NCBI GenBank assembly: GCA_026399075.1
Contig: JAPLRR010000043.1
Location: 1 to 64,000, forward strand
Direction: 5' to 3'
From: Methylococcales bacterium
GTDB lineage: Bacteria; Pseudomonadota; Gammaproteobacteria; Methylococcales; Methylomonadaceae
Length of the DNA: 64,000 nt
The position numbers and the translations under genes are program-made. The number at the start of each line of letters is the position of its first letter. Positions within the stretch are counted from its first letter, which is position 1. Positions 53,740-54,265 of the stretch are shown here, one piece after another. Under the pieces are notes generated by a model, which saw only the letters and a program-made list of their open reading frames with translations, was not told the origin of the DNA and did no database searches.

Positions 53740-53773
53740 CTGCGACAATCTGTCACGCGGCAATATGCCACAT
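53740..53773 (+). promoter_or_regulatory. Conserved upstream box of unit 1
   Basis: ctgcgacaatctgtcacgcggcaatatgccacat, identical in unit 2 and nearly so in unit 3. Confidence 0.55.
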
Positions 53774-53806
53774 TCCATCTGTTAGAACTTGGCTATAAAC
53801 TATATG

Positions 53807-53892
53807 CAACTCTTGAGATGCAACCTTCCTCCTCGGAATTTAGAGTTTTATATCCTTCTTTATAATGCGGCCCCACTGGCCGCATTTTTTTT
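53807..53892 (+). ncRNA. Putative sibling sRNA 1 (about 86 nt)
   Basis: caactcttgagatgcaaccttcctcctcggaatttagagtttt... ending atgcggcCCCACTGgccgcatTTTTTTT terminator; no supported ORF. Confidence 0.65.
53875..53892 (+). terminator. Intrinsic terminator, sRNA 1 (hairpin plus start of T-run)
   Basis: ATGCGGCC ccact GGCCGCAT followed by T8. Confidence 0.85.
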
Positions 53893-53981
53893 GCCCGTAA
53901 GTTTATCAAAGGGCCTGCGACAATCTGTCACGCGGCAATATGCCACATTCCATCCGTTAGAACTAGCCTATAGAATAGTCC

Positions 53982-54067
53982 CAACTCTTGAGATGCAACC
54001 TTCCTCCTCGGAATTCAGAGTTTTATATCCTTCTTTATAATGCGGCCCCACTGGCCGCATTTTTTTT
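53982..54067 (+). ncRNA. Putative sibling sRNA 2 (about 86 nt)
   Basis: Almost identical transcript core to unit 1; same terminator. Confidence 0.65.
54040..54067 (+). terminator. Intrinsic terminator, sRNA 2
   Basis: ATGCGGCC ccact GGCCGCAT TTTTTTT. Confidence 0.85.
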
Positions 54068-54158
54068 GCCCGCAAGTTTTAGCAACCGGACTGCGACAAT
54101 CTGTCACGCGGCAAAATGTCACATTTTAAACCCCGTATTTTACCGTTATCCTATACCT

Positions 54159-54240
54159 AACTCTTGAGATGCAACCTTCCTCCACGGAAATCAGAGCTTT
54201 ACAACCTAACTCTTTATGCGGCTTATAGCCGCATTTTTTT
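54159..54240 (+). ncRNA. Putative sibling sRNA 3 (about 82 nt, diverged)
   Basis: aactcttgagatgcaaccttcctccacggaaatcagagcttt... terminator with the same stem and a different loop. Confidence 0.65.
54216..54240 (+). terminator. Intrinsic terminator, sRNA 3
   Basis: ATGCGGC ttata GCCGCAT TTTTTT. Confidence 0.85.
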
Positions 54241-54265
54241 GCCCGTAGTTTTTGGCTATCAAACT

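What the first reader, a model, noticed from the sequence alone, without database searches (positions are those of the whole stretch)
53740..54251. Triple tandem array of putative sibling small RNA genes directly after ksgA
Three units start at 53740, 53915 and 54091. Units 1 and 2 are nearly identical. Unit 3 is diverged, and what it keeps is informative: (a) the upstream box, (b) the core caactcttgagatgcaaccttcctcc, (c) the terminator stem. No supported ORF lies inside, and each unit ends in a strong intrinsic terminator. Several sibling RNAs in a row, each with its own promoter-like box and terminator, fit a dosage-dependent or redundant sRNA family. Sibling sRNAs are established elsewhere (for example LhrC in Listeria), but I do not recognise this family.
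Basis: partly seen in the sequence, partly recalled or inferred. Interest (0 to 1): 0.9.

Follow-up and report, generated by a model that had tools for sequence, protein, structure and literature searches.

The report
Redox-controlled sibling small RNA gene array
A methane-oxidising bacterium carries three back-to-back copies of a small regulatory-RNA gene, belonging to a so far unnamed RNA family found across its bacterial family and apparently switched on by the RegB/RegA redox sensor, which hints at a hidden RNA layer in how these bacteria handle redox stress.

Summary
Units at 53740, 53915 and 54091 each contain a conserved upstream box, a -10 element, an RNA of about 86 nt and an intrinsic terminator. 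They are not a local curiosity. A covariance model finds the RNA in 173 of 201 genomes of the host's family (27 of 29 genera), and at the same cut-off in none of about 385 genomes elsewhere in its class. It has no Rfam match, and the stem shows compensatory changes. In 20 of 41 related loci the genes sit directly behind ksgA, in 1-4 tandem copies.

The upstream box is two abutting 15-mers that match the published RegA/PrrA/RegR consensus; one site in unit 3 matches two of the consensuses perfectly. The same box stands before the regB-regA operon in 12 of 18 loci inspected. In 76 of 76 units it lies 31-32 nt from the RNA start.

Best reading: RegA-activated sibling sRNAs that pair with mRNAs through CU-rich, anti-Shine-Dalgarno-like segments. 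RegA control and target pairing are inferred; no expression data or targets were found. The same RNA module also forms the leader of a HEAGH-protein gene in many genera, so a leader origin is possible.

The parts
53742..53756 (+). unit 1 distal RegA-like 15-mer GCGACAATCTGTCAC
53757..53771 (+). unit 1 proximal RegA-like 15-mer GCGGCAATATGCCAC (16/17 to PrrA, 14/15 to RegR consensus)
53796..53801 (+). unit 1 -10 element TAAACT
   Evidence: family consensus TAATATA
53807..53892 (+). unit 1 sRNA (86 nt, predicted): 5' hairpin, CU-rich linker, terminator
53864..53892 (+). unit 1 intrinsic terminator (also the first terminator after pdxA-ksgA)
53917..53931 (+). unit 2 distal RegA-like 15-mer
53932..53946 (+). 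unit 2 proximal RegA-like 15-mer
53971..53976 (+). unit 2 -10 element TAGAAT
53982..54067 (+). unit 2 sRNA (86 nt, predicted)
54093..54107 (+). unit 3 distal RegA-like 15-mer
54108..54122 (+). unit 3 proximal RegA-like 15-mer; perfect match to RegR (15/15, reverse strand) and PrrA (17/17) consensus
54147..54152 (+). unit 3 -10 element TATCCT
54158..54240 (+). unit 3 sRNA (83 nt, predicted), diverged sibling
52952..53737 (+). ksgA, conserved upstream neighbour (synteny pdxA-ksgA-sRNA)

Best explanation
The array is three paralogous copies of a small-RNA gene specific to this family of methane oxidisers. Each copy has its own promoter with a -10 element, no good -35, and a tandem RegA box whose proximal half lies about 36-50 nt upstream of the start. 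Phosphorylated RegA, the output of the RegB quinone/redox sensor kinase, is inferred to activate all copies together. Each would then yield an RNA of about 86 nt ending at a strong intrinsic terminator with a U-tail suited to Hfq. The RNAs are inferred to repress mRNAs by pairing CU-rich single-stranded stretches (CUUCCUCC in the hairpin, UAUCCUUCYUC in the linker) with Shine-Dalgarno regions. Several copies would raise the dose during redox stress. Shown here: the sequence anatomy, conservation, stem covariation, fixed promoter geometry, the match to RegA consensus and the shared box with regBA. Inferred: transcription, RegA binding, Hfq use, and pairing with mRNAs. The targets are unknown.
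For: RNA found in 173/201 family genomes (27/29 genera) at E<=0.001, against none of about 385 other class genomes at that cut-off. Compensatory changes in 5 of 6 pairs of the 5' stem and 6 of 8 of the terminator stem; 96.8% of cells paired against 91.0% in shuffles and at most 43% when slid. Box present in 76/76 units, 32 nt (71) or 31 nt (5) before CAACTC. Box matches the RegR, RegA and PrrA consensuses quoted in PMC5506826; unit 3 proximal site 15/15 and 17/17. The strict box pattern occurs in G000 only at the array, before regB, and between mmoX and a neighbouring gene, and stands before regB-regA in 12 of 18 loci. RegA orthologues in 196/201 genomes. RegB carries GGASNPI, identical to Methylomonas DH-1 RegB. 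Hfq present. No conserved ORF.
Against: No transcript, RegA-binding or target data. RegA and RegB score below the NCBIfam equivalog cut-offs (190.5 of 250; 210.7 of 350 bits), although these are the best hits. Six of 18 regBA loci lack a strict box. A seed-complement search gave no conserved target. The hairpin loop sequence varies between genera, so only the linker seed is general. In other genera the same module is a gene leader.
Confidence: 0.66

Rival explanations
1. The RNAs are terminated leader transcripts: a RegA-driven attenuator that originally controlled a downstream gene (HEAGH protein). The ksgA-linked copies are orphan duplicates with little or no trans function.
For: In many genera the same box-RNA-terminator module lies just before the start codon of a HEAGH gene. 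G000 lacks a HEAGH homologue yet keeps three units.
Against: Orphan units without a downstream gene are strongly conserved and kept in tandem behind ksgA in many genera, which is not expected of relics. No alternative antiterminator fold was identified.
Confidence: 0.17
2. The units are 3' UTR or terminator elements of the pdxA-ksgA operon, possibly yielding a processed 3' UTR sRNA rather than independently transcribed sRNAs.
For: The box starts 3 nt after the ksgA stop and unit 1 carries the first strong terminator after it. Synteny with ksgA in 20/41 loci.
Against: Promoter elements are conserved at fixed spacing, also in units far from ksgA. The other half of the loci are not next to ksgA.
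Confidence: 0.06
3. The array serves mainly as a cluster of RegA-binding sites that titrates or buffers RegA; the RNAs are by-products.
For: Up to six 15-mers per array, a large share of the strict sites in the genome.
Against: RNA stem and linker are conserved with compensatory changes, which a DNA decoy would not need.
Confidence: 0.04
4. The units encode a short peptide (MQPSSSEFRVLYPSL) from the conserved ATG.
For: ATG at +12 in 74 of 76 units.
Against: ORF length varies widely with frameshifts and early stops, differences are not enriched at third codon positions, the ATG is absent from some diverged members, and there is hardly room for a ribosome site upstream.
Confidence: 0.03

Closest known systems
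PcrZ sRNA of Rhodobacter sphaeroides (PrrA-controlled; PMC8307010)
   Same: A trans-acting sRNA placed under the RegA-family response regulator as part of a redox or oxygen circuit.
   Different: No Rfam match links the two; PcrZ is an alphaproteobacterial photosynthesis sRNA, not known to me as a tandem sibling array.
Sibling sRNAs (OmrA/OmrB, PrrF1/2, Qrr, AbcR, csRNA; review PMC4211561)
   Same: Multi-copy, often tandem RNAs with shared regulation; OmrA/B and Qrr are likewise driven by a response regulator.
   Different: Different sequence family, different regulator, different host clade.
LhrC family (Listeria)
   Same: Tandem sibling copies with C-rich single-stranded motifs (own knowledge).
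   Different: No Rfam match at the gathering score nor among weak hits; different regulator and phylum.
CcsR / cuckoo RNAs (alphaproteobacteria)
   Same: Tandem CU-rich, anti-Shine-Dalgarno-like sRNAs near C1 metabolism (the CU-rich motif from own knowledge).
   Different: CcsR RNAs are processed from a ccaF1 (DUF1127) operon with an RpoHI/HII promoter; here each unit has its own promoter and terminator.
RegB/RegA two-component system of Methylomonas sp. DH-1 (PMC13274454)
   Same: Same quinone motif GGASNPI in RegB, adjacent RegA; predicted regulator of the array.
   Different: That study does not mention sRNAs and reports feo as the direct target.

Membership tests
RegA/PrrA/RegR binding site | match to published consensus GNGRCRTTNNGNCGC / YSCGGC-N5-GWCRMA / SSGNVRDNHYSNCSS | tested here: met
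   13-15 of 15 (better strand) or 15-17 of 17; unit 3 proximal site perfect to two consensuses
RegA/PrrA/RegR binding site | same box at a known RegA-system promoter (regBA) | tested here: met
   12 of 18 regBA loci
RegA/PrrA/RegR binding site | protein binding | not testable with these tools
   needs EMSA or ChIP
RegB/RegA two-component system | RegB quinone motif, H-box and adjacent RegA with Fis-type HTH | tested here: met
   GGASNPI, HDMGTPL, adjacent RR with HTH_8; HTH region hits PrrA structure 1umq
RegB/RegA two-component system | NCBIfam equivalog cut-off | tested here: not met
   best family hit but 190.5/250 and 210.7/350 bits; the alphaproteobacterial-type models may be too narrow
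Sibling sRNA genes | two or more homologous RNA genes in one genome, each with promoter and terminator | tested here: met
Sibling sRNA genes | expressed RNA with regulatory targets | not testable with these tools
   no expression data; seed search gave no conserved target
Any Rfam family | score above gathering cut-off | tested here: not met
   no match; weak hits only
CsrA/RsmA sponge RNA (RsmY/Z, CsrB) | several GGA motifs in loops | tested here: not met
   one GGA per unit
Mobile repeat (REP/ERIC/MITE) | scattered copies without promoter or terminator | tested here: not met
   only the three array copies in G000; syntenic in other genera

The most novel reading that the evidence does not exclude
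One RNA module plays two roles across a bacterial family: a RegA-driven terminated leader in front of a gene for an uncharacterised HExxH (HEAGH) protein, and, after duplication behind ksgA, free-standing sibling sRNAs. It would be a visible case of a leader turning into (or arising from) a multicopy trans-acting sRNA inside a redox regulon.
Probability: 0.35. Interest if true: 0.72.

Novelty: new member of a known kind. Interest (0 to 1): 0.6.

Why it matters
I found no natural sRNA regulator described for gammaproteobacterial methanotrophs in the open literature searched here. A family-wide, multicopy sRNA under the RegB/RegA redox system would add an RNA layer to how these methane oxidisers handle redox imbalance, for example on methanol. 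It would also give a clean comparative system for studying sRNA duplication and the link between leaders and sRNAs. The family is easy to test in genetically tractable strains such as Methylomonas sp. DH-1.

Tried and rejected
Rfam at gathering and relaxed thresholds: nothing credible. PhoB and sigma-54 readings of the box were set aside: the repeat period is 15, not 11, and there is no -24/-12 (own knowledge). Peptide coding: rejected on frame conservation. CsrA sponge: one GGA only. Mobile repeat: rejected. Target search with the complements of the two seeds (GGAAGTTTGCATC, AGAAGGATAT) in 12 and 10 genomes: scattered hits, mostly inside or antisense to ORFs, a few near start codons in single genomes; no target shared across genera. 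The exact 20-mer core in genome contigs gave only an unrelated Prevotella match, and viral contigs none. The simple sigma-70 scan points to a wrong 'promoter' over the linker (TATAAT at 53861-53866), inside the RNA.

Full report
The observation. Three direct repeats of about 165 nt lie head to tail directly after ksgA, starting at 53740, 53915 and 54091. Units 1 and 2 are 93% identical over promoter and RNA. Unit 3 has diverged but keeps the upstream box, the core and the terminator. Each unit ends in a hairpin with 7-8 T. The folds of the three RNAs are more stable than shuffles (z -3.0, -4.4, -2.5), largely through the terminator. No Rfam family matches.

A real RNA family. The core 20-mer with up to 3 mismatches occurs in 66 of 201 family genomes, often two or three times 170-240 nt apart, while the reversed control pattern gives a handful. 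A covariance model from 39 units found matches in 146 of 251 order genomes, all listed ones in the host's family. A second model found 173 of 201 family genomes (27 of 29 genera; 139 of 159 good-quality genomes) at E<=0.001, but in a class sample of 387 only weak matches (E 0.001-0.01) outside the family. Copy number is mostly 1-4; genome G004 has four tandem copies and G026 eight matches. Same-genus genomes G154, G039 and G172 have two tandem copies about 171 nt apart, so the third copy in G000 and the near identity of units 1 and 2 suggest a recent duplication (inference).

Structure. Over 55 aligned members, 96.8% of cells in the predicted stems pair, against 91.0% in shuffles and at most 43% when partners are slid. 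Eleven of 14 pairs show changes on both sides: 5 of 6 in the 5' stem ACUCUU...AGAGU and 6 of 8 in the terminator stem. This alignment was fitted to the model, so it leans towards the structure, and each double change is carried by few sequences. In the independent MAFFT alignment A2 the 5' stem hardly varies and only the terminator covaries. The most conserved single-stranded stretch is the linker UAUCCUUCYUC, while the hairpin loop (CUUCCUCC here) varies between genera. Both stretches are complementary to Shine-Dalgarno-like sequence.

Promoter and regulator. In 76 distinct units the box GCGRCAATNTGYCACATT is always present, 32 nt (71 units) or 31 nt (5 units) before CAACTC, with a TAATATA-like -10 between and no conserved -35. 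Many units carry a second 15-mer directly upstream. The 15-mer matches the RegR, RegA and PrrA consensus sites quoted in PMC5506826. In the window, matches as good as these occur at 0.42% of positions or fewer, and the unit 3 proximal site is perfect to both the RegR and PrrA consensus. In G000 the strict pattern occurs only at the array, upstream of a RegB-like kinase gene, and between mmoX and a neighbouring gene (mmoX is my own reading of the sequence). The kinase has the quinone motif GGASNPI, as in Methylomonas sp. DH-1 RegB, and is followed by a RegA-like regulator (best NCBIfam hits ActS/PrrB and ActR/PrrA, both below the curated cut-offs). The same box precedes regBA in 12 of 18 loci inspected, so it looks like an autoregulatory RegA site. 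RegA is present in 196 of 201 family genomes. In DH-1, RegB/RegA responds to methanol-induced redox stress (PMC13274454).

Context. pdxA-ksgA lies directly upstream in 20 of 41 loci inspected, over many genera. In other genera (and degenerate in the host genus) the same module of double box, RNA and terminator sits just before the start codon of a gene for a protein of about 230 aa with HEAGH (an HExxH motif). Its homologues are only 'hypothetical protein' entries, those with a named organism being mostly Methylobacter, Methylicorpusculum or Methylococcaceae. G000 has no such protein at E<=1e-8. The RNA may thus have begun as a terminated leader, or have been co-opted as one; the direction is not settled.

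Function. The best-supported mechanism is a RegA-activated, Hfq-type sibling sRNA system that represses mRNAs by anti-Shine-Dalgarno pairing. Hfq is encoded. Peptide coding is unlikely. The closest functional parallel is PcrZ under PrrA in Rhodobacter; the closest architectural parallels are OmrA/OmrB and Qrr, sibling sRNAs driven by response regulators.

Verdict. It is a new member of a known kind. The added value is the likely RegB/RegA link and the shared use of the module as a gene leader. Not shown: transcription, RegA binding and targets.

Noticed in passing
L275-L304, L077, L105, L073, L078, L091 (other genomes): The same box-RNA-terminator module is the 5' leader of a gene for a HEAGH (HExxH, at most very weakly Peptidase_M41-like) protein of about 230 aa, with 1-4 homologues in most genomes searched.
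   Followed up: partly
L162:1722-1752 and 1924-1940 (G000 C61): RegA-like boxes, one pair abutting with the 15-nt period, between mmoX (soluble methane monooxygenase alpha, own reading of the sequence) and a divergent gene for a 225-aa phasin-like protein; RegA might act on either.
   Followed up: partly
L144:2168 (G000 C71), also L145, L146, L148, L150-L152, L154, L155, L157-L159: RegA-like box upstream of regB-regA, suggesting autoregulation; msrA-like gene often the upstream neighbour.
   Followed up: yes
53893-53905, 54068-54080, 54241-54253: A motif GCCYGYNNGTTT-like follows the T-run in array units and recurs in other genera's stand-alone units, but not in the leader-type ones.
   Followed up: no
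54821-54834: Run of about 14 C at the 3' end of the FixJ-like response regulator gene (54817-55485, minus strand); possible slippage tract or assembly artefact.
   Followed up: no
54266-54359: Nested inverted repeats (14-nt arms 100% and 21-nt arms 90% complementary) just after the array.
   Followed up: no
54490-54678: Small DUF2934 protein gene on the minus strand; a similar protein is encoded just upstream of a HEAGH gene in L299.
   Followed up: no
L272:1110-1179 and 1753-1822 (G010): Two further diverged copies of the RNA about 640 nt apart, in addition to the ksgA-linked one in that genome.
   Followed up: no
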